Assembly: GCA_005888635.1 (NCBI GenBank)
Contig: VBAW01000021.1
Location: forward strand, 1-51,684
Direction: 5' to 3'
Length of the DNA: 51,684 bases
DNA from: Candidatus Bathyarchaeota archaeon
Lineage (GTDB): Archaea > Thermoproteota > Bathyarchaeia > 40CM-2-53-6
The position numbers and the translations under genes were made by a program. Position 1 is the first letter of the stretch. Every line of letters starts with the position of its first letter. Below the pieces are notes generated by a model, which searched no databases, had not been told where the DNA came from, and was given only the letters and a program-made list of their open reading frames with translations. Positions 3,244 through 38,444 of this stretch are shown in pieces.

Positions 3244-3254
3244 TCGGAATCTAG

Positions 3255-5902: not shown

Positions 5903-5909
5903 TAAGGCC

Positions 5910-6479: not shown

Positions 6480-6496
6480 AGAACAGCTTGTCTGTA

Positions 6497-7699: not shown

Positions 7700-7725
7700 A
7701 AGCTAGGGTTGGCGGCTTCAACCTG

Positions 7726-7733
7726 TTAATAAC
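7726..7733 (-). promoter_or_regulatory. TATA-like box of the M24 peptidase gene
   Basis: On the minus strand this reads GTTATTAA. Its centre lies about 30 bp from the ATG, the spacing expected when transcription starts at or next to the start codon. No Shine-Dalgarno lies between the box and the ATG. Confidence 0.55.
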
Positions 7734-7785
7734 AAGTAAACAGTACGCGGGAAAAAAGAAGCGACATGCTGGAGAAAAAACCAGC

Positions 7786-22290: not shown

Positions 22291-23858
22291 GAGACCACTT
22301 TTCCTCCGATTATTGTCTGGACTACCTTTGTTTCTCGCAGGGATTCGAGACTGGACTCGTAGGGATCTCTGTCTAACACAACCATGTCGGCGACATTTCC
22401 CACACCCAAGGTGCCTCTGAAGTTTTCAGAGAAAGACGCGTAAGCAGAGTTCTTTGTATAAGCTACCAGAGCTTCACCCACCGTGAGTCTCTCCTTTTTG
22501 TCGAGACCGGGCCGTGCCACCGCCGACCAAATCCCCTCGAACGGATTGGGATCCTCCACGGGGCAGTCGGACCCGGCAGTGAGCAAGATTCCCGCTCTGC
22601 TCATTGAGGCGAAAGGGTAGAGTTCAGAGAGCCGTTCCTGGCCCAGCCGATCGTTCGCCCATTGGTCCGAGTACACGAATCTCGGCTGTACGGATGCGAT
22701 TATCCCTAGTCTGCGCATTTCCTTCATCGACGCTTCACTCACAATCGATGCATGTTCAATCCGATGTCGGAGATGTCTACAACCTTCTGGCCCAAAGGTG
22801 TCCCTGAGGATTCGGACTGCGAGGTCTACAGCTTTACCTCCGATAGCATGGATGCAAAGCTGGAATCCGGATTTTTTCGCTTTCGACGCTATCTCGGCCA
22901 GTTCTTCTTGACTCATGACGAGCATGCCGCTTGAGGTCGGGTCATCATGGTAAGGCTCGTTCAGGGCGGCCGTGCGAGCTCCCAAGGATCCGTCAAGGTA
23001 CAACTTCACTCCTCCGACGTGAAAAGAGTCTCCGTTGTTCTTCTCACTTGAGAGTTCTAAGGGTGCGAGACTATCCACAAGCTTTGCTGGTATGATCGCG
23101 TAGATAGATTGCGGGATCTTCTGTTCCTGTTTCAACTCTCGCAAAGAATTCAGCTCGGTTAAACTGCTGATGATACAGTGTAGTGATGTCAAGCCGAGCC
23201 TTGCAAGCTTCCTAGAGGCGTAGACCAAGGCCTTCTTGGTCTCGTCCATTGACTCTGGGACGACCTTCTCAACGAGTTCTATGGCAGTCTCCTTTAGGAC
23301 CCCGTTGGGCGTTCCTTGTGGATTCCTGACAATCTGTCCTCCTGAGGGGTTCGTGGAGAGGTTGTCGATTCCGGCTACAGAAAGAGCGGCTGAGTTGGCA
23401 ACCGCTAAGTGGCCGCAGATTCGCTTGAGGAAGACGGGGTTTGAAGTTGCAAGATCTAGATCGTCTTTTGTAGGGTAGCGGTGCTCCCGAAGCTTCTCAT
23501 CGTCCCATCCCCTGCCTAGGACCCAGGCGTCTCGAGATCTAGTGCTGCTCCAATTTGCGACTCGCCTCTTGATTTCCTCAATAGATCGCGAACGAGAGAG
23601 ATTGAGAGTGCGAAGAAGCATTCCGTAATGTAGGAGATGAATGTGTGAGTCGGAGAAGCCCGGTAATACCGTCCGGCTGCGAAGATTGACTACTCGTGTA
23701 GGCTTCGACTTGAGCTTGAGAATCTCCCGATTCGAGCCAAGATCGGTAACCCTACCCTTCGAAATCGCTGTTGCTTCGAAGCGTCTTCGGGATTCCGGTT
23801 CCGGGTAGATCCTGCCATTGTAGAGGATGAGATCGGTAACAGGCAATGTAACAGGCAA
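22287..23858 (-). CDS. Amidohydrolase, YtcJ-like (amidohydrolase-3 family)
   Basis: 523 residues. The metal motif LPGFSDSHIHLLH, the later ligands in CIHAIGGKAVD and RHRIEHASIV, and the final Asp in TAGSDCPVEDPNPFEG follow the YtcJ-type metal-dependent hydrolases, which cleave N-acyl or cyclic amide bonds; the substrate is unknown. YLDGSLGARTAALNEPY is a family hallmark. TTG 23858 gives MPVTLPVTD; a second TTG 12 nt later is equally possible because CCTGTTAC is repeated there. The 530 bp upstream contain repeat copy A and no gene. Confidence 0.88.
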   Translation of the reverse strand: MPVTLPVTDLILYNGRIYPEPESRRRFEATAISKGRVTDLGSNREILKLKSKPTRVVNLRSRTVLPGFSDSHIHLLHYGMLLRTLNLSRSRSIEEIKRRVANWSSTRSRDAWVLGRGWDDEKLREHRYPTKDDLDLATSNPVFLKRICGHLAVANSAALSVAGIDNLSTNPSGGQIVRNPQGTPNGVLKETAIELVEKVVPESMDETKKALVYASRKLARLGLTSLHCIISSLTELNSLRELKQEQKIPQSIYAIIPAKLVDSLAPLELSSEKNNGDSFHVGGVKLYLDGSLGARTAALNEPYHDDPTSSGMLVMSQEELAEIASKAKKSGFQLCIHAIGGKAVDLAVRILRDTFGPEGCRHLRHRIEHASIVSEASMKEMRRLGIIASVQPRFVYSDQWANDRLGQERLSELYPFASMSRAGILLTAGSDCPVEDPNPFEGIWSAVARPGLDKKERLTVGEALVAYTKNSAYASFSENFRGTLGVGNVADMVVLDRDPYESSLESLRETKVVQTIIGGKVVS

Positions 23859-23947
23859 GATTATCCTGTCTGGAACCGCTTGATGGAGATTTCAGCATTG
23901 GGCTGTTAGCGTGCCTACTCTCGGCCAGATATTTCTCCAAACTGCCG

Positions 23948-24186
23948 TTTTGTGTCGCGAGGATCAACTACTTTTGAGATTTTTCGACAGGGGTCTCGCC
24001 AGTTGAAGCTGATCCGGGCGAGTCCTGTTGTTCAGGGCGCAGAATGGAACTGTCAACCGTTTCTGTGATCGCGGATTAAGCGTAGAGGTCAACGCGAAAA
24101 AGTCGCAAGCTCAAATCGCCTGCCCCGATTCCGGATCCAAGCGTATTCTGCGCTTGTCCTGTTTGAAAAAGGAGCAGTCTGCGAAT
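23948..24186 (+). repeat. Dispersed structured element, copy A
   Basis: A non-coding segment that recurs at 38166-38413 in the same orientation. Over 147 ungapped positions (23991-24137) I count 22 mismatches, about 85% identity, mostly transitions. GGCGCAGAAT (24036-24045) pairs with ATTCTGCGCT (24145-24154). Inside that pairing lie stems GCGT/ACGC (24080-83 with 24092-95) and AATCG/CGATT (24114-18 with 24126-30). CTCGCC/GGCGAG forms a separate stem before it. The right edge is AGTCTGCGAAT. A TATA-like GATATTT near 23927-23933 could start a plus-strand RNA at the element's left edge. TTTTGTGTCG, the left edge, recurs once at 24219. The rest of the gap (23859-23947, 24187-24389) shows nothing else. 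No ORF in it is conserved with copy B. Confidence 0.75.
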
Positions 24187-24389
24187 TGTCAAGCCGTTGA
24201 CTGGCCGGGTAGGGGGATGTTTTGTGTCGGTCCTGACGGATAATTTTCTCAGAAGAATTCTAAGTGCATCAATCAAACTTTGAAGCTCACGAAATGGCCC
24301 GACCCCGTTTTGAACGCGAATTCTCTGCTGAAACGGTTTTCAGATGACGATTCGTGATCTGTGAGAAAATGAAATGTCGCGGTCAGAGA

Positions 24390-26111
24390 CTAATTGGCGA
24401 GCAGAGAAGAAAGAGAAGGGTCAATGTTGGCGGGATCGCTGATCGGAGGCCCGCAGGTTTTCCCCGCGCAAACGTAAGCTACTGGAGCCTTCCCAGCATC
24501 GAACCCGAGACGATCTATCTGGTCCACGTCCCTGGCTGGATCCAGATACCTTACGTATCTTCTGGCAGGATAGAGCTTCAGAGCTTCCGCCTTGAACGCG
24601 ATGAATTGTTTCGACTTGGAAGGTGCGATAATTGTGATCCCTATAGGACCGTTAAACAATGAATCGAGCACCAGCGCATAGCTCGCTCCCGTAACTCCGT
24701 ATCTCTCATAGTCGGCATTGAATAACTCGAGTGCTTTGCCCGCAACGGTTGCATAGTTGGCTTTCTCTAAGAGCCATGATAGTCGCAGGAGTCCATTTGC
24801 GATCATGCTGTTCTCATCAATTGGCTTGTCTCTCGTCCTGAGTTCGCCCAAGTTGGAATCCTCCGAAGGAATATCGTAGAAGCCTCCTGAAGTCTTGTCG
24901 TTCAACTTCTCAATCGAATCCTCCGCCATTGCGACGGCTTTGTCGAGATAGGCTCGCTTGCCCGAGTATTCGTAAGCGTCCAGAAGTGAATGGAGCAACG
25001 GCCCGTAATCCACCAAGAGTCCTTTCAACTTCACACCCTCCTCTTCTCTCCAGTAGTGAAAGGGCAGTCCTCCGTCCTCTTGAAGACCCAGGATGCGGTC
25101 TAGGGTCTTCAAAGCAAACTTGCCGAGTTCCGACCGGTCCAAGACGATACTCGAAAGAAGGAAGGCCGAGACGAGTAGCGCATTGTAATTCGTGTAGAGT
25201 GTCATGTCAATCGCCGGGGTCTTGCGAGTGCTACGCCCTAAGAGATCGAGTTTGTAGTACTCCTCATCTGCATCCTGACTTCCGAAGAATCCTCCCTTCT
25301 CCAAGTCCGCCAAACTCGAATTCACGTACTTCACGATTCCCTCTGCCCTATCTCGGTATAGCTGTCTACCGGTTAATTGGAAGGCATGTAAGTATACAGC
25401 CAGAAGTTTCGCATTATCCTCCGCCATCTTCTCGAAGTGGGGAATCGACCAGTCCCGAGTAGTGCTGTACCTGAAGAATCCCTGTTCTACCTGATCATAG
25501 ATTCCTCCGTTACCCATCTTGTCAAGGGTCTTCGTTGCAACGGTCAGCATTTCTTTCTCCCCGTGATAATGGTAACGTAATAGCGCATACTCCAACGCCT
25601 CGGAGTGGGGAAATTTCGGCTCGAAACCAAAGCCGCCATAATCTATGTCAAAGTTGACCGCCACAGTTGTCGCAATGTCTTTTGTGATCTTGTCCGACAA
25701 GGCTTCGTTCTCGGCTTGAGGAATTCGCCTTGCCTGGAACTTGCTACCAATCTTCCCCTTGTTTGTTCCATAGAAGTCTAGAACGGAGCGGAGGACTTCC
25801 CTCAACTGCTCAGGAGGAATGTAGGTTCCGCCGGTGATGATTCTCCCTTCATTGTCCAAGAAAGCTGTAGTAGGCCAACCCCCCATATTGTACCGACGAT
25901 TAACGTCGGGTCTCCTGTCGGTGTCGACTCTAACAGGAACGAAGTTCTTGTTCACTAAGTCGATGACCACTGGATCCTTGTAGGATGTGTTGTCCATAAC
26001 GTGGCACCAATGGCACCAAGAACCCGTTATGTCCAACAGAATCGGCTTCCCAAGCGACTTCGCCCTCTCAAAACTCTCCTTTCCCCATTCCAGCCACTGA
26101 ATCTTATTCAT
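24390..26111 (-). CDS. DUF255 thioredoxin-like protein (YyaL/SSP411 family)
   Basis: 573 residues from ATG 26111. The N-terminal thioredoxin-fold domain has WLEWGKESFERAKSLGKPILLDITGSWCHWCHVMD with the CHWC redox motif and YNMGGWPTTAFLD. The rest is an alpha/alpha barrel like cellobiose epimerases (KFPHSEALEYALLRYHYHG, YDQVEQGFFRYSTTRDWSIPHFEKM, GGFFGSQDADEEYYKLD). Typical family length is 600-700, so this one is short. The role is unsettled in all organisms. A longer reading to 26186 would start upstream of the TATA element (26144-26151) and is unlikely. Confidence 0.88.
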   Translation of the reverse strand: MNKIQWLEWGKESFERAKSLGKPILLDITGSWCHWCHVMDNTSYKDPVVIDLVNKNFVPVRVDTDRRPDVNRRYNMGGWPTTAFLDNEGRIITGGTYIPPEQLREVLRSVLDFYGTNKGKIGSKFQARRIPQAENEALSDKITKDIATTVAVNFDIDYGGFGFEPKFPHSEALEYALLRYHYHGEKEMLTVATKTLDKMGNGGIYDQVEQGFFRYSTTRDWSIPHFEKMAEDNAKLLAVYLHAFQLTGRQLYRDRAEGIVKYVNSSLADLEKGGFFGSQDADEEYYKLDLLGRSTRKTPAIDMTLYTNYNALLVSAFLLSSIVLDRSELGKFALKTLDRILGLQEDGGLPFHYWREEEGVKLKGLLVDYGPLLHSLLDAYEYSGKRAYLDKAVAMAEDSIEKLNDKTSGGFYDIPSEDSNLGELRTRDKPIDENSMIANGLLRLSWLLEKANYATVAGKALELFNADYERYGVTGASYALVLDSLFNGPIGITIIAPSKSKQFIAFKAEALKLYPARRYVRYLDPARDVDQIDRLGFDAGKAPVAYVCAGKTCGPPISDPANIDPSLSSLLAN

Positions 26112-26143
26112 GAGCGAGCCGACAGCATACAATCGTCGAGAAT

Positions 26144-26151
26144 CATATAAG
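26144..26151. promoter_or_regulatory. TATA-like box serving both directions
   Basis: CATATAAG on plus and CTTATATG on minus. It lies 32 bp before the GAF gene ATG (26179) and 36 bp before the DUF255 gene ATG (26111). Both spacings suit short-leader or leaderless transcripts. Confidence 0.5.
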
Positions 26152-26178
26152 AACCCTAGAATCACTCGACAGCAGAGA

Positions 26179-26592
26179 ATGCCCAAGTCCCGGACACAGG
26201 CTACTCAAAGCCCAGGTTCCTCTAGGGTTCTCGCTAGCTTGAACAGAGCTCTCTCAAACCAGTCCTTAACCAAGGCGTTGGCGATGTCCGTCGAGATACT
26301 CCGAGAGAAATTCAAATCACTTCGACTGGGTGGGAATCTATCTCGTGCGAGAAAACGATCTGGTCTTGGAAGCTATGCAGGGGATGAAGAGACTGAGCAC
26401 GTTAGGATACCGATAGGAGAGGGAATCTGCGGCTCCGCTGCCAAAGAAGTACTCGGGGAGATAGACATCGACAGCAATCGACTACCCGCGTTCAACCAAG
26501 AAGATCGAGAGATTCTCCAAGAGGCAGCATCGCTTCTAGCCCGTCGTATTGAGAGTCAGTACATGACGTCTCATGAACCTTCAGCTCTGTGA
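26179..26592 (+). pseudogene. Damaged GAF-domain gene (free-methionine-sulfoxide-reductase-like)
   Basis: The ORF starts MPKSRTQATQ and carries ALAMSVEILREKF, then loses sense between about 26316 and 26385. In that stretch the +1 frame reads HFDWVGIYLVRENDLVLEAM, a classic GAF core. Sense returns to the first frame at DEETEHVRIPIGEGICGSAAKE. This implies two compensating one-base indels, one after an A-run and one at a G-run. The next residues jump to VLGEIDIDSNRLPAFNQEDREIL, so the usual middle of about 30 residues (V-P-D-V region with the fRMsr cysteines) is missing. It could be a decayed gene or read errors plus a deletion. It overlaps the pyrD end by 22 bp. Confidence 0.7.
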
Positions 26593-27500
26593 GCTGCGGC
26601 CGTCGATATAATCTCCTGAATCGATCTGTATCCTTTCTTCTCGAGGAACTTCCCGATTCCTGTGGTCACTTCTCGGAACACTTCGAGACCTCTACTCGTG
26701 ACCGCGCTTCCAATCTGGACAGCTGATGCACCTGCCATCATCATCTGCACCGCGCCCTTCCAATCCTCAATTCCACCGACCCCAATGATGGGGATGCGAA
26801 CTGCCTGCCTAATTTGATAGACCGCTCTAAGCGCGATCGGATGTATGGCTGGACCTGAGAGCCCGCCGAGGACGCCTCCAAGGATCGGGAAACCTGAATC
26901 TACGTCGACCGCTGTTCCCAAGACCGTATTGATCGCCGTGATAGCGTCGGCACCCGCACCTTCGGCAGCCCTCGCGACTTCAGTAATGTCGGTAACGTTC
27001 GGACTTAGCTTTACGAACACGGGGACGTGGACTCGACTCTTCACAGTTTGAGTAACTTCTGCAACGACATTCGGCCGTTGGCCGATCTCAACCCCCACTT
27101 CCTTGACATGTGGGCATGAAACATTAAGCTCCACCGCGATAGCACCACCCCTTTCCCCCATCATTGCAGACTCTGCAAATTCCTCCGCATCAAAACCGAA
27201 GACGCTCGCTATGACTGGCACTCTCTGCTTCGAAGCGGTCTCAACCTCCTCCCGCATCTCCTCCATTCCCGGGTTGGGTATGCCCAAGGCGTTGAGAAAC
27301 CCGCCGTGTACTTCAATGAAAGACGGGTTTCTGTACCCTTCCCTCCCCTTCCTATTGAACGATTTACTGACAACGGCTCCGGCACCCGCTCTTGAGACTC
27401 GGATCAGCATCTCGCCCGAAACTCCCAGAATCCCGGAGGCTAGAATCGTCGGATTGGGGAGTTTAATACCTGCAAACTCTACCGACAAATCCGGTTCCAA
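26571..27500 (-). CDS. pyrD: Dihydroorotate dehydrogenase, class 1B-like
   Basis: 309 residues. An FMN TIM-barrel enzyme that makes orotate in pyrimidine synthesis. The N-terminus VEFAGIKLPNPTILASGILG, the GFLNALGIPNPG loop, the active-site Cys in ELNVSCPHVKE (class 1 uses Cys as base), KLSPNVTDI, INTVLGTAVD, and GVGGIEDWKGAVQMMMAGASAVQIGSA for phosphate binding are all present. Class 1B normally pairs with the PyrK electron-transfer subunit; none is in the window. TTG start, with TATA-like ATAATTAG about 38 bp upstream in the spacer shared with nop5. Confidence 0.93.
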   Translation of the reverse strand: MEPDLSVEFAGIKLPNPTILASGILGVSGEMLIRVSRAGAGAVVSKSFNRKGREGYRNPSFIEVHGGFLNALGIPNPGMEEMREEVETASKQRVPVIASVFGFDAEEFAESAMMGERGGAIAVELNVSCPHVKEVGVEIGQRPNVVAEVTQTVKSRVHVPVFVKLSPNVTDITEVARAAEGAGADAITAINTVLGTAVDVDSGFPILGGVLGGLSGPAIHPIALRAVYQIRQAVRIPIIGVGGIEDWKGAVQMMMAGASAVQIGSAVTSRGLEVFREVTTGIGKFLEKKGYRSIQEIISTAAAHRAEGS

Positions 27501-27595
27501 GTGCGCCTAAACATGAACGGTATTGCCGTGCTAATTATCTTCGCGCGAGCATCAAGCAATCATCACGTTCTCGTCTTCGAGTCAGGAGCAGAGTC

Positions 27596-28906
27596 TTGAA
27601 AGCGTACTTGATCGATTCCCCCGCCGGACTGTTTCTACTCGAAAAAACGGGGAAGATTTCGGAAAAGGCTCTCTTTGCCCACAATCCGAGCGATGCCGCC
27701 AGCCAGTTGAAGAAAGTCCTCAACGGGGAGCTACCCCCAGAGTCCTCAGCCTTCGGCCAACGGCTCATGCAGATAGAACTCGACCAGGTTACCGTGGACA
27801 GCGAGCCACTAGCGAGACTGGCCCGTTCAATCGTCAAAGCAGAAGTTGTGCAAGACGAGAACGACCCTACCATTTCAAAGCTCAGAAACAGACTGCCATC
27901 GATTCTAGTTCGCCTTAGGATCATCGAATCGAAAGATGAATATGAGCAATTCGTCCGAGAGGTTTCCCTTGAACTTGCCAAAACGGCGATAACAGAAGCT
28001 ACAACGAAACGAGATCTCTACGCAATTCAAACAGTGCGAAGTATCGAAGACCTGGACAAGATTCTCAACCTTCTCGCCGGCAGAGTCAGAGAGTGGTATG
28101 GCCTCCACTTCCCCGAACTGGATCGCTTAGTGGAAAAACACGACTCGTACATTCGACTCGTTCATAATCTCGGCGCCAGAGATTCATTCTCATACGACGC
28201 CTTGACAAAACTCGGCATACCACAAGACAAGGCGACGCAGATCTCCGCATCGGCCGAGAAGTCCTCTGGGGCCGAAATGACAGGCTCGGATCTAGAATGG
28301 CTACGTCAGGTCTGCGGAACAGTGCTTGAGCTGTATGGCTTGAGAGAAGCTGCCGAGAAATACACTGACAAGATCATGGGAGAGGTAGCACCGAACATGA
28401 CATCAGTCCTCGGCGCAGTTCTCTCCGCGAAACTCATCTCCATGGCAGGAGGACTCGAGAATATCGCAAAGATGCCATCAAGCACCCTCCAAGTGCTCGG
28501 AGCAGAAAAAGCGCTCTTCAGAACGCTAAAGACTGGAGCTAGACCGCCGAAGCATGGTGTCATCTTTCAATACGCACCGATCCATCAGTCGCCAAAATGG
28601 CTTCGCGGAAAGATCGCGAGAGCAGTTGCTGGAAAACTCGCCATAGCAGCCCGAATGGACGCGTATGGGGGAGGTGACAAGGGGCAGGGGCTTAAGGACG
28701 CACTCGAAAAGAAGATCGTAGATCTGAAAGGTCGTTATCAAGGTCCACCTCGCAAGAGAGAGCATGGAAGGACGTGGCGCCCGCCAGCACAAGAAGTTCG
28801 AAGGGATATACTGGGTACTCCGAGAGGGAGAGGAGAGACTGGCCACACTCAGCCAGGACCCCGGGACGACCGTCTACGGGGAAGACACCGCAAGGATCGG
28901 AGATAG
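27596..28906 (+). CDS. Nop5/Nop56-58 box C/D RNP scaffold protein
   Basis: 436 residues. Bridges L7Ae and fibrillarin on C/D guide RNAs for 2'-O-methylation. N-terminal domain (1-120), coiled-coil (about 125-240, with RSIEDLDKILNLLAGRVREWY and HFPELDRLVEKHDSYIRLV), and NOP domain (about 250-385) with PNMTSVLGAVLSAKLISMAG and LGAEKALFRTLKTGARPPKHGVIFQY. The normal basic end should come near KGRYQGPPRKR. Instead the frame stays open for about 47 more codons, Arg/Gly-rich, overlapping fibrillarin by 143 nt. The tail may be real or due to a lost stop. TTG start. First gene of nop5-fibrillarin-DUF61. Confidence 0.93.
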   Translation: MKAYLIDSPAGLFLLEKTGKISEKALFAHNPSDAASQLKKVLNGELPPESSAFGQRLMQIELDQVTVDSEPLARLARSIVKAEVVQDENDPTISKLRNRLPSILVRLRIIESKDEYEQFVREVSLELAKTAITEATTKRDLYAIQTVRSIEDLDKILNLLAGRVREWYGLHFPELDRLVEKHDSYIRLVHNLGARDSFSYDALTKLGIPQDKATQISASAEKSSGAEMTGSDLEWLRQVCGTVLELYGLREAAEKYTDKIMGEVAPNMTSVLGAVLSAKLISMAGGLENIAKMPSSTLQVLGAEKALFRTLKTGARPPKHGVIFQYAPIHQSPKWLRGKIARAVAGKLAIAARMDAYGGGDKGQGLKDALEKKIVDLKGRYQGPPRKREHGRTWRPPAQEVRRDILGTPRGRGETGHTQPGPRDDRLRGRHRKDRR

Positions 28907-29459
28907 AGAGTATCGGGTCTGGGACCCATATAGGAGTAAGCTCGCTGCCGCAGTGCTGAAAGGGCTGTCTGAAGTTCCTATCAAACCCGGGAATAGTGTT
29001 CTCTACCTCGGGGCGGCAAGTGGCACCACCGCCAGTCACGTGAGCGACATCGTAGGAGAGAAGGGACGAGTCTACTGTGTAGAGTTCGCTCAGAGATCAT
29101 TTAGAGACCTAGTTAATAACACGAGTAAGAACAGGAGAAATATGACCCCAATCTTCGGAGACGCAAGGTTTCCAGAAAAGTACAGGAGCATCGTCCAAGG
29201 GGTCAACACTCTCTACGCTGACATCGCACAACCGGACCAAGCAAGAATCCTCTCTGAGAACATCCATCAGTATCTCAGCGACAATGGAGATTTCATGTTA
29301 GCGGTAAAGGCTAGAAGCATCAATGTCTCGGAGGAACCATCAACAATTTTTCAACGAGAAAGAACCGTCCTTGAGGAAAAAGGCTACCGGGTGAAAGAAA
29401 TGATCCGACTCGACCCGTTCGAAAAAGACCACTGTATGATTCTGGGCAGCAAACGGTGA
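28764..29459 (+). CDS. flpA: Fibrillarin-like rRNA/tRNA 2'-O-methyltransferase
   Basis: 231 residues. SAM-dependent methylase of the C/D RNP. Starts MEGRGARQHKKFEGIYWV, typical of archaeal fibrillarin. The Rossmann core has NSVLYLGAASGTTASHVSDIVG (SAM motif I), VYCVEFAQRSFRDL, ADIAQPDQARIL and FMLAVKARSINV, whose Asp and Lys belong to the K-D-K-H-like catalytic set. The C-terminus LDPFEKDHCMILG is conserved. ATG start inside the nop5 reading frame; usually the two genes abut or overlap only slightly. Confidence 0.95.
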   Translation: MEGRGARQHKKFEGIYWVLREGEERLATLSQDPGTTVYGEDTARIGDREYRVWDPYRSKLAAAVLKGLSEVPIKPGNSVLYLGAASGTTASHVSDIVGEKGRVYCVEFAQRSFRDLVNNTSKNRRNMTPIFGDARFPEKYRSIVQGVNTLYADIAQPDQARILSENIHQYLSDNGDFMLAVKARSINVSEEPSTIFQRERTVLEEKGYRVKEMIRLDPFEKDHCMILGSKR

Positions 29460-29466
29460 ACTCGAC

Positions 29467-29922
29467 TTGGAGCAGCGTGATCGGTTCTTTGACGCACTGC
29501 TTCGCGATGACATGAGAAAGCTCAACTCTCATCTTCCTAAGAACCGTAGAACTCTGAAAGAACTTCTGAGCGATCCCGCCCCGAAGGTTCCAGCTGCGTC
29601 TGGAGACCCTATCAAGATGAAGAAGGATGAGCTTGAAGAACTGTCTCGTTCTCTTCCTGCTGAAGCAGATACACGTGTAAAGCTACCGATTGTTCTGCTC
29701 AGAAGGAGAGACCTCGGACCAGGGGCCTACACAGTTATGGGAGATAGGTACGAAGAGTATGCAATGTTGCTGCTGGCTGGATCCTTCAACGGAAGTTTCG
29801 AAGAGTACAGAGAACAGAAATCTGACGTAGCCATACTATTCAAACCACAAATTAGTCTGTTGATGAGAAGATTTCACTCGTTACTAATACTCGGATTTGG
29901 GAGTTCGGACATACGCGGGTAG
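29467..29922 (+). CDS. DUF61 / UPF0216 family protein
   Basis: 151 residues of an archaea-specific family of unknown function. Seen: DALLRDDMRKLNSHLPKNRRTLKELL at the N-terminus, a charged linker, LPIVLLRRRDLGPGAYTVMGDRYEEYAMLLLAG, and FKPQISLLMRRFHSLLILGFG. TTG start 7 bp after the fibrillarin stop, preceded by GGTGA (29456-29460) that could act as a ribosome site. Its place behind nop5-fibrillarin suggests a link with RNA modification or ribosome assembly; this is inference from context. Confidence 0.82.
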   Translation: MEQRDRFFDALLRDDMRKLNSHLPKNRRTLKELLSDPAPKVPAASGDPIKMKKDELEELSRSLPAEADTRVKLPIVLLRRRDLGPGAYTVMGDRYEEYAMLLLAGSFNGSFEEYREQKSDVAILFKPQISLLMRRFHSLLILGFGSSDIRG

Positions 29923-30087
29923 AGTCCATCTATGAGCAATGTCCGTGATGTCAAGTCACGGAGATGACAAACTCTAACGTTCATTAGCGAAGGCTTTCGA
30001 TGCGAAAACAGCCCACAGGATGAATAAGCCAGACTACCAGTATGATTCCGACTGAAGGTGAGTAATTTCTCCGAGTGCTTGAGAAGT

Positions 30088-30213
30088 CTACGAATCGATA
30101 CTGAGGGTCCATTTTCCTGCAGGCAGGCGCGGGGATGCTCGAATTGGCACAACTTTGACGTTCAACTTCTTGCGCTTCGTCGTGGTCTTCAAGTAGTATT
30201 TCCTCGGCCTCAT
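30088..30213 (-). CDS. Possible 41-residue basic small protein next to sagB-like gene
   Basis: An ATG-started ORF reading MRPRKYYLKTTTKRKKLNVK and ending WTLSIDS; 11 Lys/Arg in the first 25 residues. It is divergent from the SagB-type gene and shares its upstream region. No family is recognised. It could be a nucleic-acid-binding miniprotein, a peptide substrate of the oxidoreductase, or chance. The gap around it (29923-30256) also has a hairpin CCGTGA-N7-TCACGG near 29941-29959. I see no Cys and no clear leader/core boundary. Confidence 0.33.
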   Translation of the reverse strand: MRPRKYYLKTTTKRKKLNVKVVPIRASPRLPAGKWTLSIDS

Positions 30214-30226
30214 CTCACATCGCACG

Positions 30227-30234
30227 AAATATAA
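30227..30234 (+). promoter_or_regulatory. TATA-like box of the SagB-type gene
   Basis: AAATATAA, centred 26-29 bp before the TTG/ATG start of the downstream gene, preceded by purine-rich bases that would suit a BRE. Predicts leaderless transcription. Confidence 0.55.
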
Positions 30235-30256
30235 CGCTTTCCGATGCCAAAGGGGA

Positions 30257-31429
30257 TTGATGAAGAGCAAGTTGACTTCTGACGGTAGAAAAAACAATAG
30301 TGAACTGTCTAGGTTGAAGATGAGAAGATCGTCCAATATAATGATGTATTTTCGTCGAGAGCACCTGATTGCCGAGAATTACATGAGGCGACGAACCTTC
30401 AGAATTGACTTGAACGCCATGACGCTCCTCAGCTACTTTTCGAACTGGAGAACTGCTTCGGAGGCCTCAGAGAGTCTGAGCGGTTATACCAGAGAGTCCG
30501 TCTTTCACACGATTCAGAGCCTAAGAGACAGCGGTTTGCTTATCACCAAAGATTCTACTGAGAACAAGCTAGAAAACAAATTTGGAAAGGAATGGCAGTG
30601 GCCGACAGCCTCCCGGTACTATCACTTTTCCACCAAGATCGACGACCCTCACAATTCGACCGAAGAGATTAACCGGTATTACGATAAATATCTCAAGGGA
30701 AGAAGACAGCCGCCAATTTACAAATCTTATCCTAGACAACTTAAGATCGATCTGCTGAAAGAACCTGACATCGAAGCCCCATTTTTCGCAACGCTTCGCA
30801 GGAGACACTCGACGAGAGAACTCTCTGGGAAACCGATAAGCTTCAATGAAATGTCAAGACTCGCTTACTACACCTGGGGAAGGATCTCATCCTACAAAAC
30901 TCGCGAGTTCGGTGAGCTGCTCCACAAGACCAGTCCCTCTGCTGGAGCCCGCCACCCAATAGAAACCTACGCGATCGTCAATAATGTCGAGGGGATTGAG
31001 CCAGGCATATACCACTACTCTGTGAGGGACCACTCGCTTGAACTTCTCAAAGCTGGAGATTTCCGAGAGCGATGCGTGGTATTGACCGCAGGTCATTCAT
31101 GGACAAGAAACGCCAGCGCCCTTTTCGTAATGACAGCTGTCGTTGCTCGAACGGCTTGGAAATATCGAGTGCCCCGAGTCTATAGGGCATTCCTACTTGA
31201 CGCCGGACATCTCTCGCAGTCGTTTCTTCTAATCGCTACAGCTCTCGGACTTGGCTCCTTCTGCATTGGCATATTCCGTGACAACCTTATCGAGAAGGAG
31301 TTGAATATCGACGGTATCTCAGAAACAGTACTATTCGCCGTAGGAGTCGGGCACGCCCTCAAGAGCCATCACGAACCAGATCAAAGCGTCTATCATGATT
31401 ATTCTCACCCTCTGCCTAGCGAAGCCTGA
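30257..31429 (+). CDS. SagB/ThcOx-type FMN oxidoreductase (nitroreductase fold)
   Basis: About 390 residues. The N-terminal 190 residues include a winged-helix-like part (FRIDLNAMTLLSYFSNW to IQSLRDSGLLI), as in SagB-type dehydrogenases. The C-terminal nitroreductase domain starts RRRHSTRELSGKPISFNEMSRLAYYTWG, then SPSAGARHPIETYAIV and IYHYSVRDHSLELL, and ends FCIGIFRDNLIEKELNIDG and FAVGVGHA. Family members oxidise azolines to azoles in RiPPs, but many archaeal ones are orphans. No YcaO/cyclodehydratase is present here. Start is TTG 30257 or ATG 30260; the TATA box fits either. Confidence 0.85.
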   Translation: MMKSKLTSDGRKNNSELSRLKMRRSSNIMMYFRREHLIAENYMRRRTFRIDLNAMTLLSYFSNWRTASEASESLSGYTRESVFHTIQSLRDSGLLITKDSTENKLENKFGKEWQWPTASRYYHFSTKIDDPHNSTEEINRYYDKYLKGRRQPPIYKSYPRQLKIDLLKEPDIEAPFFATLRRRHSTRELSGKPISFNEMSRLAYYTWGRISSYKTREFGELLHKTSPSAGARHPIETYAIVNNVEGIEPGIYHYSVRDHSLELLKAGDFRERCVVLTAGHSWTRNASALFVMTAVVARTAWKYRVPRVYRAFLLDAGHLSQSFLLIATALGLGSFCIGIFRDNLIEKELNIDGISETVLFAVGVGHALKSHHEPDQSVYHDYSHPLPSEA

Positions 31430-31639
31430 TTACGCCTGGCGTTTCAACAACTAGCCATTCCGCAGGTCGAGTTTGCCACGTCGCGCGCGGGAACCACCGA
31501 CACTCCCACAAATGGGTCTCGGAGGCTGCCAGCTACCTAGCTTGAACCTCAGACACTCATAGCATCTAGTGCTCCAGATTCCACTCGATGCGTTCAACGC
31601 TTATCTACGCGACAATTCCTGATATCAACTGGTCTTTGC

Positions 31640-32731
31640 TTGCCCGATGATTCCATAGCAAAACGCGTTGTCCAGACCTCGTTGAGAATCCATGAGGACG
31701 ACATGGTTGTCATTGATACCTGGCAACACACTATCGACCTAGCAAGCGACATTGCGCTCGAATGCCTCAGGACAGGTGCAAAGCCTCTGATCACACTGAT
31801 GACTGACCGATTGTGGTGGAAGGCCCTAGAGGAAATACCGGAACAATACTTCCGCAAGACACCTAGACATATCCTGAGTGCGATGGAGAGTGCTACAGTA
31901 TGGATTGGGATCGGGGGTCCCGAAGACCCGACAAAGTTCAGAGAAGTTCCCTCTTCCCGTCTCGAGCCGTTTTTCGAGGGCGACAAACCACTCGTAGACA
32001 AGACTATTGAAAGAAAAATCCGAGTCTTGCAAGTTCTGCTCGGCGACGTCACCCTTCAAAGAGCTAGGGCTTATGGTTTCGACTATGCCAGATGGCTCAA
32101 GAACACTGAGGATGCGATTAAGGTCGACTATCCGAAAATGACGGAGTTAGGCAAGAAGATTGCAGGCCGTCTCGAACGGGCATCAAAGGTCCACATCACA
32201 TCCAAGATCGGAACGGATCTCAGGTTTGACATTACGAAGCGGCCAGTACACATTGAAGACGGGATTGTAGACCAAGAAGACATGGAACGAGGCCTCGTCT
32301 CTACTCAACTTCCGTCGGGGAAAGTTGAAGTGCCACCTGTCGAAACGAGTGCTCGAGGCACTGTTGTGCTTGATACTCCCAGGGCCTTGAAGGGACGTCT
32401 CATAACCGATCTTCAGTTTGTCTTTGAGAAGGGAAGGATCAAGGAATTCCACGCCAAAAAATACGAGGATGTGTTTAGAGAGGTCTTCGAAGCGACTCAG
32501 GGCGACAAGGACAGGATTGGCCAATTTGCTCTTGGTTTGAACCCCAAGATAGAGATTATCGGATATCGCACAGACGAGCTTGCTCTAGGAACAGCGACCA
32601 TTGGAATCGGAGCCAACAAAGGAATCGGGGGACAGAACGACAGTAGTCTGGCATTCTCAGGGACGCTCACGAAACCGACCATCGACATCGATGGGTTGGC
32701 CATCATGGTCGACGGAAAGCTCGTAATCTGA
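31640..32731 (+). CDS. M29-like aminopeptidase (leucyl aminopeptidase superfamily)
   Basis: 363 residues. N-terminal Rossmann-like part (VVIDTWQHTIDLASDIALECLRTGAKPLI) and C-terminal catalytic-type part (TSKIGTDLRFDI, LPSGKVEVPPVETSARGTVVLD, FALGLNPKIEIIGYRTDELALGTATIGIGAN). In typical M29 enzymes metal ligands include a Glu near LPxGEV and a late His. Here LPSGKVEV and GGQNDSSLAF lack the late His, so activity may differ. TTG start, TATA-like CTTATCT 35 bp upstream. It precedes hutI and may feed peptide-derived histidine into that pathway (inference). Confidence 0.78.
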   Translation: MPDDSIAKRVVQTSLRIHEDDMVVIDTWQHTIDLASDIALECLRTGAKPLITLMTDRLWWKALEEIPEQYFRKTPRHILSAMESATVWIGIGGPEDPTKFREVPSSRLEPFFEGDKPLVDKTIERKIRVLQVLLGDVTLQRARAYGFDYARWLKNTEDAIKVDYPKMTELGKKIAGRLERASKVHITSKIGTDLRFDITKRPVHIEDGIVDQEDMERGLVSTQLPSGKVEVPPVETSARGTVVLDTPRALKGRLITDLQFVFEKGRIKEFHAKKYEDVFREVFEATQGDKDRIGQFALGLNPKIEIIGYRTDELALGTATIGIGANKGIGGQNDSSLAFSGTLTKPTIDIDGLAIMVDGKLVI

Positions 32732-32794
32732 CCGCGTTATAATTATCAAGACTCTGTCGAACAGGTAAAAGGGAAACCACGGACGAAACGCCGA

Positions 32795-34024
32795 ATAGAT
32801 CTCCTGATCCTCGACTCAAAGGAAACCGTCTCAGTAGCCAACCCTACGAAGGACGACCTCGACGTCATAGATGACGGGGGAGTCGCAATCAATAGGGGCA
32901 AGATCGTCGAGGCTGCATCATCTCAACTACTCCAAAGAAAGTACTCGGCTTCAAAGCACATACTCGCAACGGATGAGATAGTCCTCCCCGGCTTTGTAGA
33001 CCCGCACACCCACCTAGTCTTTCAAGGATCAAGAGAAGAAGAATTTCAACAACGACTCGGAGGAGCCTCCTACCTCGACATTCTCCACAAAGGAGGAGGA
33101 ATTATGGAAACCGTCAATAAGACACGCCAGACAACTGAGGACGAACTCTTCTCAATCGCCCAATGCCGTCTCGACGCTATGATAGAGGCCGGAACAACCA
33201 CCCTAGAAATCAAGAGCGGATATGGGCTCAACCTGCAAGATGAGCTGAAAATCCTCAGAGTCATTCGCCGGCTGAAGAGACAGAATCCGTGCAAGATAGC
33301 TGCAACATTTCTCGGCGCTCACTCAATACCCACCGGAATGATCTCCGAAGAGTATGCGAAGATGGTTATGGAGGAAATGATTCCTGCCATTCATCAGAAA
33401 AGACTTGCGGAATTCTGCGATGTCTTCTGCGAAAAAGGAGTCTTTAACCCGGAGCTTTCGAAAGAAATATTGAGAGCGGGATCCAGGAACGGTCTTAGGC
33501 CTAAGATACACGCAGACCAGTTCTCAGACAGCCAAGCCGCAAGAGTCGCAAACGACGTTAGGGCGACGTCGGCTGATCACCTCGTGCATTCGGAATTAGG
33601 CGAGCTGCAGAGAATGGGCGAAACTTCGGTAATTCCAGTTCTTCTTCCCGCCTCCTCGCACAGTCTGATGAGCGAGGACTATGCGCCTGCGAGGGACATG
33701 TTATCACAAGGACTCCCAGTGGCACTGGGAACCGACTTTAGTCCGTCCAACTGGATTCTCGGACTGCTGACAGTTGCCGCGGTTGCGACCAGAGGACTCC
33801 GGATGAAAGCAGCGGAGATCATTCGCGGAATCACGATCAACGCAGCCAGATCGTTGAGCCTTCAACAAAGTGTAGGGAGTATCGCGAACGGCAAACGCGC
33901 TGACATCGTAATCTTGAAGGTTCCAAGTTACAAGTGGATTGGCTACACGTATGGGGAAGGATTGGTGGACAAGGTCCTTATTGAGGGAAAGGAAGTGGTG
34001 AGGGAGGGCAAGAGAGTCCATTGA
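32795..34024 (+). CDS. hutI: Imidazolonepropionase (start codon not standard)
   Basis: Opens 4-imidazolone-5-propionate to N-formimino-L-glutamate. N-terminal beta part [20 protein letters not shown], then the metal motif [71 protein letters not shown] and ITINAARSL. The frame is open back to the peptidase stop at 32729, but no ATG, GTG or TTG occurs in any frame between 32732 and about 32870. ATG 33104 would remove the HTH metal site. The likely initiator is ATA 32795, ACG 32783 or CTG 32804; I set 32795 as a placeholder. TATA-like GTTATAATTA at 32736-32745 lies just after the peptidase gene. Confidence 0.9.
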
Positions 34025-35712
34025 CTCCTCAGGGTCAACCACAGCCCGTTACCACTCTGAAGCAGAAACAGAATCTGTCTCTGATCACGGGTAGGACCCT
34101 GAACTGCAGAAATTGGCAGATTGAGGGGGCTTTGAGAATGCTACACAATGTTCTGCAGCCGGACGTAGCGAAAAACCCTGATGAGTTGATCGTCTACGGT
34201 GGAACAGGAAGAGCTGCTCGATCATGGGATGCTCTTGAGACGATCGAGACTTCTCTCAAGAAGCTGGGGGAGGAGGACACTCTTCTTGTCCAGAGCGGGA
34301 AGCCTGTGGCGATCTTCAAGACTCATAGGATGGCGCCGAGGGTCTTGATCGTCAACAGCATGCTAGTGCCCAAATGGGCGACATGGGATTACTTCTACGA
34401 ACTCGAACAGAAGGGACTGATAATGTTCGGACAAATGACTGCCGGATCTTGGGCTTACATCGGAACACAGGGAATTCTACAAGGCACTTACGAGACGCTT
34501 GCTGCTGCGGCTAGAGAGCATTTTGGGGGGAGTCTGAAAGGTAGAGTCGTCCTAACAGCTGGCCTCGGCGAGATGGGGGGAGCGCAACCGTTGGCAGTGA
34601 CGATGAATCATGGGATCGCCCTAGCCGTCGAGATCGATAATCGGGCGATAGAGAGGAGACTGAAGCATGGCTACGTTCAGAGATCGACTGATGATCTTGA
34701 CGAAGCGATCGATATTGTGAATCAAGCTAAGCAAGAAGGAACTTCGGCAAGTCTTGCCCTGCTCGGAAACGCTGCTGAGATTCATCCAGAGCTTGTGAGA
34801 AGATCAATCATTCCGGATATCGTTACAGATCAGACATCGGCCCACGATCCACTAAACGGATACTATCCCGCGGGAATGTCGAAGGAGGAAGCTGACCAGC
34901 TGAGAAAGTCCGACCCGACTGACTATCTCGACAAGGCTGGCAAAAGCATCGTGACCCATGTCAAAGCCATGATCAATATGGGTCGCAAGGGAGCTGTTGT
35001 CTTCGAATATGGCAACAACATTCGACAAAAGGCCTTTGACACCGGTCTGAAAGAAGCATTCGAATTCCCGGGATTCGTTCAGAAGTACATCAGACCAATG
35101 TTCTGTGAAGGTAGGGGTCCGTTCAGGTGGACGTCGCTCGTTGGGGACCAAGAAGACATCCGGAAGATAGACCAGCTCGTCCTTGATACTTTTCCAGACA
35201 ATATGGACCTTCGGAGATGGATAGAGAAGGCTCAGCGGCACGTCAAGTTCCAAGGACTGCCCGCCCGGGTCTGCTGGCTGGGATATGGCGAGAGAGCAAA
35301 GTTCGGAGCACGCATCAACGAAATGGTCAGAACAGGAAAATTATCGGGTCCCATATGGATCGGACGCGATCACCTCGACTGTGGGAGTGTCGCCTCGCCG
35401 AGACGAGAGACAGAGGGGATGATGGATGGAAGTGACGCGATAGCTGACTGGCCGATCCTCAACGCGCTTCTCAATACTGCGGCAGGTGCAACGTGGGTGA
35501 GTGTCCATCAGGGTGGCGGGGTCGGGATGGGCTACAGTATACATGCGGGCATGTGTCTTGTGGCTGATGGCACACCTGAAGCCGCGGAAAGGCTAGAAAG
35601 AGTCCTGACTGTGGACCCTGGGATCGGAATTGTCCGACATGCTGACGCAGGCTATTCGAAAGCGAAGAAGATTGCTAGAGAGAAGGGAATACGGATGCCG
35701 ATGCTCAAGTAA
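34021..35712 (+). CDS. hutU: Urocanate hydratase
   Basis: 563 residues, normal length. Converts urocanate to imidazolonepropionate using tightly bound NAD. Seen: [75 protein letters not shown] (NAD region), [28 protein letters not shown] and [17 protein letters not shown]. The TTG start overlaps the hutI stop by 4 bp (TTGA), a sign of translational coupling. The order I-U-H makes a compact histidine breakdown operon. Confidence 0.96.
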
Positions 35713-35763
35713 GCCCGCCAATACTTATCTCTCAAACATCCTCTGCAAACGACCCGTGGGACA

Positions 35764-37311
35764 TTGGCCCAGGTTATGATAGACGGATCACACCTTACAC
35801 TCGATCAGGTCTTGCGGGTTGCAAGAGAGAACGCCGAGACAGTCATCTCAGAGAAAGCGATCGCCCGCACAAGAAACGGACGCAAAGCCCTCGAACAACT
35901 ATTACAAGAAAAGAAAGTGATCTACGGAGTCAATACAGGATTCGGAGCACTATCAAACTTCAGAATACCGACGGAGGATCTGAAACAGCTACAGACGAAC
36001 CTTATCCGGAGCCACTCCACTAGCGTGGGACGACCACACTCGTCGGAAGTTGTGCGGGCTATGATGCTTCTACGGGCAAATACGCTTCTCAAAGGAAACT
36101 CGGGAATCAGACCAGAGGTAGTCAGCATGATCGTAAAGCTACTCAACAAGCAGATCCACCCATACGTACCGGAGAAGGGCTCGGTGGGCGCCAGCGGAGA
36201 CTTATCGCCGCTGTCTCACATGGCCCTTGTACTTCTTGGGGAAGGAAGCGCCGAATCGCGCGGCCGATGGATTCCAGGTAAGAAAGCTCTAGAAGTTTCG
36301 GGCAGTGTTCCCCTCAAGCTCGAAGCGAAGGAGGGACTCGCACTGAACAATGGTACCCAGCAGATGGTCGCGATAGGCTGCTTGTGCCTTTTCGACGCCT
36401 ACCAACTCCTAGCGACTATGGAAGCTTCGCTCGCTCTATCGCTCGAAGCTCTGAAGGGCTGGGTCGATGCCTTCGATGAAAGAATACAGAAGCTTAGGCC
36501 CCATCCGGGACAACAGATGGTAGCTGAAGAAGTTCGAGGACTAGTGAGAGGAAGCAGAACGGTTAGAACGATAGAGAGTGGCGATCATTCGAATGGTCGC
36601 CCTCAAGACCCATACTCATTCAGATGCGCCCCACAAGTGATGGGAGCGTCGAAAGATGCGTTTGATTTCACAAAACAGATTCTAGAGGTAGAGATGAATT
36701 CGGCTACTGACAATCCTCTCGTGTTTCCAGAGGATGGCGTCTGTATTTCCGGGGGCAACTTTCACGGACAGCCAGTTGCTATGGGACTCGATATCATGGC
36801 CTTGGCGATCTCCTATCTTGCCAACATGTCGGAGAGAAGAATATCCGCCCTGTTAGACCCGTCGCTCAACAACGGGCTTCCACCGTTTCTGGTCGGGGGA
36901 CGATCGAAGCCGGGACTCTCAAGCGGGTTGATGGCGGTCCAGTACACGGCGACATCGCTTGTTGCTGAGAGTAAGCTGCTGACGCATCCTGCTAGCAGTG
37001 ACTCGATCCCGACGTCGAGCAATTTTGAGGATTTTGTCAGCATGGGACCCGGAGCAGCCCACAAGGCGAGAATGATTCTTGAAAACTCCCAGTACGTGGC
37101 CAGTATAGAGCTACTTGTTGCGGCGCAAGGAGTTGATTTGAGAGGCGCTAAGGGACTGGGAGGGGGGACTAGACGAGTCTTTCAAGCTATCAGACGAAAG
37201 GTTCCTCCGCTAATTGAAGATCGGTCTTCCCACGATGATATCGAGAAGATTCGCAAGATGGTTCGCGATGGTGAGATAGCGAAGATCGTCGCCCAAGTTA
37301 CTGGGTCCTGA
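35764..37311 (+). CDS. hutH: Histidine ammonia-lyase
   Basis: 515 residues. Removes ammonia from histidine to give urocanate. The self-made MIO cofactor comes from Ala-Ser-Gly in GSVGASGDLSPLSHMALVL. Other family signatures are YGVNTGFGALSNF, QMVAIGCLCLFDAYQLLA, QDPYSFRCAPQVMGA, NSATDNPLVF, SGGNFHGQPVAMGLD and the C-terminal Ser/Ala-rich helices. Start is TTG 35764 or ATG 35776; TATA-like ATACTTATC (35721-35729) suggests that hutH also has its own promoter. Confidence 0.96.
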   Translation: MAQVMIDGSHLTLDQVLRVARENAETVISEKAIARTRNGRKALEQLLQEKKVIYGVNTGFGALSNFRIPTEDLKQLQTNLIRSHSTSVGRPHSSEVVRAMMLLRANTLLKGNSGIRPEVVSMIVKLLNKQIHPYVPEKGSVGASGDLSPLSHMALVLLGEGSAESRGRWIPGKKALEVSGSVPLKLEAKEGLALNNGTQQMVAIGCLCLFDAYQLLATMEASLALSLEALKGWVDAFDERIQKLRPHPGQQMVAEEVRGLVRGSRTVRTIESGDHSNGRPQDPYSFRCAPQVMGASKDAFDFTKQILEVEMNSATDNPLVFPEDGVCISGGNFHGQPVAMGLDIMALAISYLANMSERRISALLDPSLNNGLPPFLVGGRSKPGLSSGLMAVQYTATSLVAESKLLTHPASSDSIPTSSNFEDFVSMGPGAAHKARMILENSQYVASIELLVAAQGVDLRGAKGLGGGTRRVFQAIRRKVPPLIEDRSSHDDIEKIRKMVRDGEIAKIVAQVTGS

Positions 37312-37318
37312 GTCGAAC

Positions 37319-38083
37319 GTGATAGTCTACCCACTTAGATCGAGTCTTGCGAAACCCGGAGACTCCATTCCCGAACTGTTCTCTAAGGCTCTAGCAAAGA
37401 AACGTACACGTCTCAAAACAGGAGACATAGTAGCAGTCTCAAGCAAGATTGTTGGAATCTGCGAAAATAGGATCCGATACCTCGACAGCATAAGACCCGG
37501 GTGGCGGGCTAGAAGACTCGCTCGCAAACATTCTATGGTTCCCTCGTTTGCTCAAGCCGTTCTAGACGAAGCGGATACCGTGGTCGGCGGCGTGAAGGGA
37601 GCGCTTCTAACGGTGAAGAACGGTGACGCTGTTGCGAATGCCGGGATCGACCGAAAGAACGCGCCGGAGGGAGCTGTTGTGATCTGGCCTCGATATGCAG
37701 ACTTGTCTGCGGTGAAAATCCGACAGTCTATCCGACGAAGATCGGGAAAAAATGTGGGAGTCGTAATTGTCGATAGTCGAGTGAGCCCGATGAGGCTGGG
37801 GACGACGGGCTTTGCGATCGGCTGTGCAGGTTTCGAACCAGTCGAAGACCTCAGAGGAGGCGTCGACCTTTTCGGCGGACGAATCGAGATCACGTTCCGA
37901 GCGATCGCCGATGGAGTAGCAGCATCGGCTCAGCTTGTGATGGGCGAGGCGTCGGACCAGATTCCCTTCGCGATAGTTCGCGATGCCCCCGTTAGACTAA
38001 GCAATGGGCACGATATTCGTTCAGCAAAGCTGACGTGGAATCGATGCCTCTACATGAGCCAGATCCCACGCGGAAATGATTGA
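37319..38083 (+). CDS. CofE-like F420-0:gamma-glutamyl ligase family protein
   Basis: 254 residues. CofE adds glutamate to coenzyme F420-0 with GTP. Seen: LKTGDIVAVSSKIVGICENR, LLTVKNGDAVANAGIDRKNAPEGAVVIWP, VGVVIVDSRVSPMRLGTTGFAIGCAGFEPVEDLRGGVDLFGG and VAASAQLVMGEASDQIPFAIVRDAPV. The usual D-T/S-x-G-R-P-x-R motif is DSRVSPMRLG here, so it belongs to a side branch and could ligate glutamate to something else. GTG start 7 bp after hutH, clearly in the hut operon; no formiminoglutamase is seen. Confidence 0.82.
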   Translation: MIVYPLRSSLAKPGDSIPELFSKALAKKRTRLKTGDIVAVSSKIVGICENRIRYLDSIRPGWRARRLARKHSMVPSFAQAVLDEADTVVGGVKGALLTVKNGDAVANAGIDRKNAPEGAVVIWPRYADLSAVKIRQSIRRRSGKNVGVVIVDSRVSPMRLGTTGFAIGCAGFEPVEDLRGGVDLFGGRIEITFRAIADGVAASAQLVMGEASDQIPFAIVRDAPVRLSNGHDIRSAKLTWNRCLYMSQIPRGND

Positions 38084-38165
38084 GTTTGAGGAGCATCGAT
38101 TTGGATTCAAAGACTACAGACTCTCCGGGAAATAGCAGGATTCCCGGGAAGCGCCCAAAGAGCAC

Positions 38166-38413
38166 TTTTGTGTCGTGAGGAGCGACTGCTTTTGAGATTT
38201 CTAGGAGAGGGGTCTCGCCAGTTGAGACTGTTCTGGGCGAGTCTCGCGTTTCAGGGCGCAGAATAGAACCGTCACCTGTTTTTCTGATCGCAGATTAAGC
38301 GTGGAGATCAGCGTGAAAAAGTCGCGATCTCAAATCGCCTGCCCCGATTCCGGATCAGGGTTCATTTTGCGCCTATTCCTCTTCTTGACTTTCGAAAACC
38401 CTAGTCTGCGAAT
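38166..38413 (+). repeat. Dispersed structured element, copy B
   Basis: Second copy of the element at 23948-24186, same orientation, between the convergent ends of the cofE-like and metzincin-like genes. 38210-38356 aligns without gaps to 23991-24137. GGCGCAGAAT (38255-38264) pairs with ATTTTGCGCC (38364-38373): one G-C of copy A is G-U here, and copy A's outer G-U is G-C here. The inner stem is GCGT/GCGT (38299-302 with 38311-314) with two wobbles where copy A has Watson-Crick pairs. Eight extra bases relative to A lie between the right arm and AGTCTGCGAAT. The rest of the gap shows no gene. Confidence 0.75.
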
Positions 38414-38444
38414 CATTCTCTAGTCTGCTGTTGTGGGGCGCAGC

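What the first reader, a model, noticed from the sequence alone, without database searches (positions are those of the whole stretch)
23948..38413. A 240-bp non-coding element occurs twice, 14 kb apart, same orientation
23948-24186 and 38166-38413 share about 85% identity over 147 ungapped bases (22 mismatches counted by hand), with shared left and right edges (TTTTGTGTCG and AGTCTGCGAAT). Flanking DNA is unrelated. Neither copy encodes a protein conserved in the other. Both sit between genes and next to gene ends. This is the signature of a dispersed repeat family or a multi-copy small RNA that I do not recognise.
Basis: seen in the sequence. Interest (0 to 1): 0.75.

Follow-up and report, generated by a model that had tools for sequence, protein, structure and literature searches.

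The report
Shuffled intergenic repeats in soil archaea
The two matching stretches belong to a family of roughly 240-base non-coding repeats scattered between genes in one family of soil archaea; copies stay at fixed places for long periods but appear to swap their interiors with one another, and in one mapped case the DNA between two copies has flipped.

Summary
In detail: window 23937-24186 and 38155-38413 are 82% identical, same strand, non-coding. They belong to a dispersed repeat family of a soil Bathyarchaeota-like MAG: 31 places at E<1e-20 by BLAST, 46 units at E<=1e-4 by a sequence profile. The profile matches all 18 genomes searched in the genus, 20 of 21 in the family (two only weakly), 0 of 17 others in the order. 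Units of about 235 bp occur singly (53 of 87 fetched loci) or as head-to-tail doublets (34 of 87, partial second units counted). RNA structure is not supported (mean folding z -0.22 and -0.58), and no terminal inverted repeats or target-site duplications were found. What is unusual: sites are shared across species, yet in 12 of 16 chosen orthologous sites a unit's nearest relative lies at another site; PHI indicates recombination in three of four sets; and a 6-kb inversion between two related genomes has both breakpoints in opposed doublets. Best reading: old, now mostly sessile intergenic repeats undergoing ectopic homologous recombination, perhaps kept as U-tract-rich 3' ends of transcripts (inferred).

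The parts
23937..24186 (+). Copy 1 of the repeat (subfamily A1, my name) with the start of a linker-like sequence at its 3' end
   Evidence: nhmmer match 23940-24171, 222 bits; alignment with copy 2
24187..24229 (+). Probably a decayed linker and the stub of a second tandem unit (TTTTGTGTCG at 24220-24229)
   Evidence: read in sequence and compared by eye with intact linkers; no significant profile match of its own
38155..38413 (+). Copy 2 of the repeat; its right end resembles the right end of the second unit of the G009 ortholog, so it may be a doublet collapsed to a hybrid single copy
   Evidence: nhmmer 38157-38382, 231 bits; in G009, L061 16024-15817 matches element 1-208 and L061 15546-15489 matches element 182-240
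22287..23858 (-). Amidohydrolase gene left of copy 1
   Evidence: Pfam PF07969
24390..26186 (-). Thioredoxin/DUF255-like gene right of copy 1 (its stop faces the repeat)
   Evidence: Pfam PF03190
37319..38083 (+). F420-0:gamma-glutamyl ligase-like gene; 82 nt lie between its stop and TTTTGTGTCG of copy 2
   Evidence: Pfam PF01996; coordinates
38445..40451 (-). 668-aa gene, convergent; 31 nt lie between the right edge of copy 2 and its stop; no Pfam match
   Evidence: relatives

Best explanation
The element is a lineage-specific family of short non-coding intergenic repeats (unit about 235 bp, single or head-to-tail doublet, usually with a linker of about 70 bp) that probably spread in an ancestor of one Bathyarchaeia family and is now largely sessile. 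Shown: (1) family, copy number and distribution; (2) sites shared across species; (3) at many shared sites the unit is closer to a copy elsewhere than to its ortholog, with recombination among copies; (4) one 6-kb inversion bounded by opposed doublets. Inferred: the exchange is ectopic homologous recombination (gene conversion, sometimes crossover); at copy 1 the differences from G009 stop, by eye, about where similarity between copies stops. Also inferred, at about 0.3: copies are kept because they end transcripts. They tend to start just after a same-strand stop codon, carry several T4-T5 runs on their + strand, and often end in GATTTTTC when no linker follows. How the family first spread is unknown.
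For: 31 places by BLAST and 46 units by profile in G000. Profile hits in 18 of 18 genomes of the genus including G000, 20 of 21 in the family (the two other genera with best E 6.7e-9 and 1.8e-6), 0 of 17 in other families of the order. Sites with matching flanks across species. Copy 1: 150-bp flanks 97% and 95% identical to G009, element 84%, while a copy at another G009 site (L067) is 91% over 195 bp. In 12 of 16 chosen orthologous pairs a unit's best match among 109 units is at another site; in 8 of 16 the element is less alike than both 150-bp flanks. PHI: G000 units z -7.3 (0/1000 permutations), G000+G009 z -7.1 (0/1000), G003+G008 z -3.2 (1/1000). Inversion: G000:C15 509-2226 and 8723-15600 direct, 2041-8895 inverted relative to G009:C16, with doublets at 2009-2539(-) and 8409-8941(+). 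The window and G009:C34 are collinear over 8361-47366 with one large break, about 6 kb, at copy 2. Of 41 site groups, 12 start within 35 nt after a same-strand stop, 2 lie in the mirror position. T4+ runs: 3.24 per unit on +, 1.06 on -; mononucleotide shuffles 0.76 and 0.37.
Against: PHI is not significant over all 109 units together (z -0.4, 343/1000), perhaps from saturation. The 16 pairs were picked from the list, which holds only occupied sites. Only one inversion is fully mapped; other synteny breaks near copies (sites L016, L023, L009, L020) are unresolved, and MAG assembly errors cannot be excluded. Breaks at copies were not compared with a genome-wide control. Indels per substitution in the element (0.027-0.033) are not clearly different from flanks (0.044), so selection is not shown. 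14 of 39 site groups with a call have the upstream gene on the opposite strand, which a pure terminator role does not predict. Gene calls were a home-made hexamer score.
Confidence: 0.7

Rival explanations
1. Non-autonomous transposon (MITE-like), still mobilised in trans by a transposase.
For: Intergenic, multi-copy, short, and apparently absent at some orthologous sites: copy 1 in G011 (and a site about 450 bp shorter in G003 and G008), copy 2 in G003 and G008, the L006 site in G003, G008 and G012 by spacing.
Against: No terminal inverted repeat above shuffles and no consistent target-site duplication in 81 loci. At the 4 G000 sites looked up by flanks and found with both flanks together in the close relative G009 (both window sites, L008, L013), all 4 are occupied. 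Empty sites were seen only in more distant genomes, where spacers no longer align well. No transposase search was made.
Confidence: 0.3
2. Family of structured small RNAs made from many loci.
For: Conserved motif order over about 170 bp; a recurrent CTCGCC...GGGCGAG hairpin (by eye); an RNAalifold run with ribosum scoring gave -44.5 on + with a large covariation term; a few strong couplings are Watson-Crick (columns 155-180, 162-189, 164-187).
Against: Default RNAalifold on 88 diverse rows gives no pair; mean z -0.22 on + and -0.58 on - over 99 copies; most of the strongest couplings are not Watson-Crick; no pronounced AT peak upstream; no Rfam match on the elements.
Confidence: 0.12
3. A transcription-ending 3' module: a long terminator with several U-tracts, kept at gene ends by selection.
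For: 12 versus 2 site groups start right after a same-strand stop; T-run excess on +; TTTT near the end of 16 of 28 last units and 20 of 48 single units, against 9 of 33 first units and 10% of 616 background windows; U-tracts bound by aCPSF1 end archaeal transcripts (PMC8716108, passages).
Against: Much longer than a U-tract terminator; many copies face the other way; selection not shown.
Confidence: 0.3
4. Binding sites for a chromosome-organising or regulatory protein.
For: A core of about 30 bp with a dyad (CAGTTGAAACTG, by eye) is the part that BLAST still finds in distant congeners (query 67-97); conservation has a weak 20-21 bp period.
Against: By my rough estimate the period is not significant after allowing for the periods scanned; no protein candidate was sought or found.
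Confidence: 0.15

Closest known systems
ERIC / BOX / RUP-type intergenic repeats of bacteria
   Same: Short, intergenic, tens of copies or more, sometimes at gene 3' ends (review PMC10969869, passages)
   Different: Archaeal; no palindrome or inverted-repeat architecture found; doublets with a linker; interiors that appear swapped at fixed sites
Archaeal MITEs (Sulfolobus SM1-SM4 and others named in PMC10969869, passages)
   Same: Copy number in a similar range (25-44 reported there for S. solfataricus; 31 places or 46 units here)
   Different: No TIR, no TSD, no parent insertion sequence identified here
REP/BIME repeats (recalled)
   Same: Extragenic units that occur singly or in pairs, often after stop codons (recalled)
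   Different: Unit about 235 bp, not a 35-bp palindrome; pairs head to tail
Archaeal U-tract terminators (PMC8716108, passages)
   Same: Several U4-U5 runs on the sense strand after stop codons
   Different: Long conserved body beyond the U-tracts; not tested as terminator

Membership tests
MITE (features partly from PMC10969869 passages, partly recalled) | Terminal inverted repeats | tested here: not met
   Local alignment of ends: mean 7.93 against 7.59 for shuffles, maxima 13 and 11, 81 loci
MITE | Target-site duplication | tested here: not met
   No offset pair above the permuted maxima for k=3-6; boundaries are imprecise, so a weak signal could be missed
MITE | Parent autonomous element supplying transposase | not tested
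   No transposase search was made; copy 2 has no match in plasmid or phage records
MITE | Multi-copy, short, without a transposase gene, intergenic | tested here: met
Structured non-coding RNA family | Conserved secondary structure with compensatory changes | tested here: not met
   the ribosum-scored consensus was not reproduced with default scoring
Structured non-coding RNA family | Discrete transcript | not testable with these tools
   No RNA-seq available
Known Rfam family | Covariance-model match | tested here: not met
   Window 23800-38600 only: three weak matches to microRNA models, none on the elements
Archaeal U-tract terminator | U4+ tracts shortly after stop codons on the sense strand | tested here: inconclusive
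   By position 12 of 41 site groups start within 35 nt after a same-strand stop; many others are placed otherwise
ERIC/REP-type palindromic repeat | Imperfect palindrome over the unit | tested here: not met
   Folding hardly better than shuffles; no inverted ends

The most novel reading that the evidence does not exclude
A genome-wide cassette-shuffling system in uncultured archaea: some 30 or more fixed chromosomal sites, many at gene ends, share one pool of roughly 200-bp interiors that are exchanged between sites and between species by ectopic recombination while the edges stay put, so that transcript 3' regions diversify faster than the DNA around them; crossovers between the same copies invert multi-kilobase gene blocks.
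Probability: 0.3. Interest if true: 0.72.

Novelty: new variant of a known kind. Interest (0 to 1): 0.5.

Why it matters
Dispersed intergenic repeats are well known in bacteria, less so in uncultured archaea. This family offers a natural record of ectopic exchange in Bathyarchaeia: fixed sites, alignable flanks and many alleles make the exchange rate measurable from MAGs. It can mark inversion breakpoints and may confuse assembly and orthology near gene ends. The literature searches made listed no description of it, but their listings were short or capped and only open-licence PMC papers are held.

Tried and rejected
Structured RNA: an RNAalifold run with ribosum scoring looked encouraging, but default scoring on a diverse alignment gave no pairs and folding z-scores are near zero. 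The model R1 is therefore sequence-only.

Coding or degraded gene: rejected by stops in all six frames in most copies and lack of codon phase.

tRNA association: copy L009 looked tRNA-like upstream by eye; ARAGORN reported tRNAs in only 4 of 87 loci, not L009.

Viral origin: a 17-mer scan gave 10 exact hits in viral contigs, none with a profile match even at E<10. Copy 2 has no match in plasmid or phage records.

Exceptional length constraint: suggested by the nearly gapless alignment, not supported against flanks.

The first multiple alignment mixed strands because loci were not oriented; it was redone.

Rows dropped: loci L028-L030 repeat L020, L011 and L014 and were dropped before the context counts (87 loci remain); the tree used hits spanning at least 170 model positions (109 units); the edge test used 81 loci; the folding test 99 full-length copies.

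Full report
Observation. Copies 23937-24186 and 38155-38413 are real, same strand, 82% identical (138/168 ungapped; 204/248 gapped; direct-repeat family D1), far above chance (206 bits; at most 29 bits in 20 shuffled windows). The left flank of copy 2 occurs once in G000 and once in G009 among 21 genomes. The window is a whole contig, G000:C17, of a 2.18-Mb MAG. Its genes include an archaeal Nop5/56 and an F420 ligase. Relatives of one gene lie in three soil archaeal MAGs, one titled Candidatus Bathyarchaeota.

Family. BLAST with copy 2 finds 31 places at E<1e-20 in G000, itself included. In 40 other genomes BLAST matches 16 of 17 congeners, several only in a core of about 30 bp, and 0 of 23 outside the genus. 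A sequence-only profile (R1) finds 46 units in G000 and matches 18 of 18 genomes of the genus (G000 included) and 2 of 3 genomes of other genera of the family, weakly (best E 6.7e-9 and 1.8e-6); none of 17 genomes in other families of the order. Copy 2 has no match in the plasmid or phage collections.

Anatomy. nhmmer over 88 sequences held gave 127 hits. The unit is about 235 bp. Of 87 non-duplicate loci, 34 hold two units (partial ones counted) and 53 one; paired units share orientation, and no cluster had more than two. In most doublets a linker of about 70 bp joins the units. Last and single units often end in TTCTGGGCGATTTTTC or similar (TTTT near the end in 16 of 28 last and 20 of 48 single units; 9 of 33 first units; 10% of 616 background windows), whereas first units usually run into GTTTGAAAC..CAGTCTGCGGATT. 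Both window copies bear linker-like right ends, and copy 1 is followed by a stub TTTTGTGTCG at 24220. Subfamilies exist and doublets combine them (names mine).

What it is not. Not coding. Not a demonstrably structured RNA: default RNAalifold gives 0 pairs on 88 rows and mean z is -0.22 (+) and -0.58 (-) on 99 copies with 40 shuffles each; a ribosum-scored consensus did not hold up, though a few couplings are Watson-Crick. No TIR and no TSD found.

Fixed sites, moving interiors. Flank matching shows many sites shared across species (that list holds only occupied loci by construction). Among sites looked up by flanks, both window sites and L008 and L013 have both flanks together in G009 and all four are occupied. 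Copy 1 is absent in G011 (110 bp between flank matches against 553), and its site is about 450 bp shorter in G003 and G008. Copy 2 is absent in G003 and G008, present as a divergent type in G011 and, by eye, in G012. The L006 site is empty by spacing in G003, G008 and G012. In 16 orthologous pairs chosen (13 G000-G009, 3 G003-G008), the element is less alike than both 150-bp flanks in 8, and in 12 a unit's best match among 109 units is at another site. Examples: window copy 1, ortholog 84%, other site L067 91%; L007, ortholog 82%, other site L066 92%; L022, ortholog 78%, other site L080 92%. In 4 of 16 the ortholog is best. PHI supports recombination within G000 (0/1000), G000+G009 (0/1000) and G003+G008 (1/1000), but not across all 109 units (343/1000).

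Rearrangements. G000:C15 and G009:C16 differ by an inversion of about 6 kb whose two breakpoints lie in oppositely oriented doublets: left and right flanks direct (80% and 85% identical), middle inverted (91%). The window and G009:C34 are collinear from 8361 to 47366 except for one large break, about 6 kb, at copy 2. At the L023 site the element is reversed relative to a flank in G009 and G011, and about 3 kb more lies there in G011; the L016 flanks lie on two G009 contigs; synteny ends near the L009 and L020 copies. These last cases are unresolved, and no genome-wide control was made.

Function. Of 41 site groups, 12 start within 35 nt after a same-strand stop and 2 lie in the mirror position; 25 have a same-strand and 14 an opposite-strand upstream gene. 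Units carry 3.24 T4+ runs on + and 1.06 on - (shuffles 0.76 and 0.37). U-tracts serve as archaeal termination signals bound by aCPSF1 (PMC8716108, passages). A terminator-like 3' role is plausible but unproven; indel rates give no sign of special constraint. The first residues of neighbouring proteins showed me no common theme; no family search was run on them beyond.

Judgement. A real, lineage-specific repeat family that the searches made did not find described; fixed sites with apparently swapped interiors are its most unusual property.

Noticed in passing
G000:C151:3471-3566 and 14 other G000 places (L224-L238): A second dispersed repeat of about 93 bp with a T-run, a CCCCCGGGGGG core and a purine-rich tail; 15 matches in G000, 7 of them, by coordinates, within about 220 bp of the first family; matches also in G003, G008, G009 and G011.
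   Followed up: partly
L061 9505-15489 (G009:C34): About 6 kb present beside the copy-2 site in G009 and absent in the window; a Kelch-like and small membrane-like ORFs by eye, no transposase seen by eye, no family search run.
   Followed up: partly
G017:C22, G017:C73, G014:C116: Short contigs carry copies (and for G017:C22 flanks) much like those of G000, although a gene of G017 matches the window at only 64%; either horizontal transfer or misbinned contigs.
   Followed up: no
window 38445-40451 (-): 668-aa protein with an HELGH metalloprotease-like motif and, in its relative L061, a C-terminal four-cysteine ribbon (by eye); no Pfam match; relatives 72-88% identical in three soil archaeal MAGs.
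   Followed up: no
linkers of doublets, e.g. L004 between its two units: The linker holds a short inverted repeat (TCTTCG...CGAAGA) seen by eye in some doublets.
   Followed up: no
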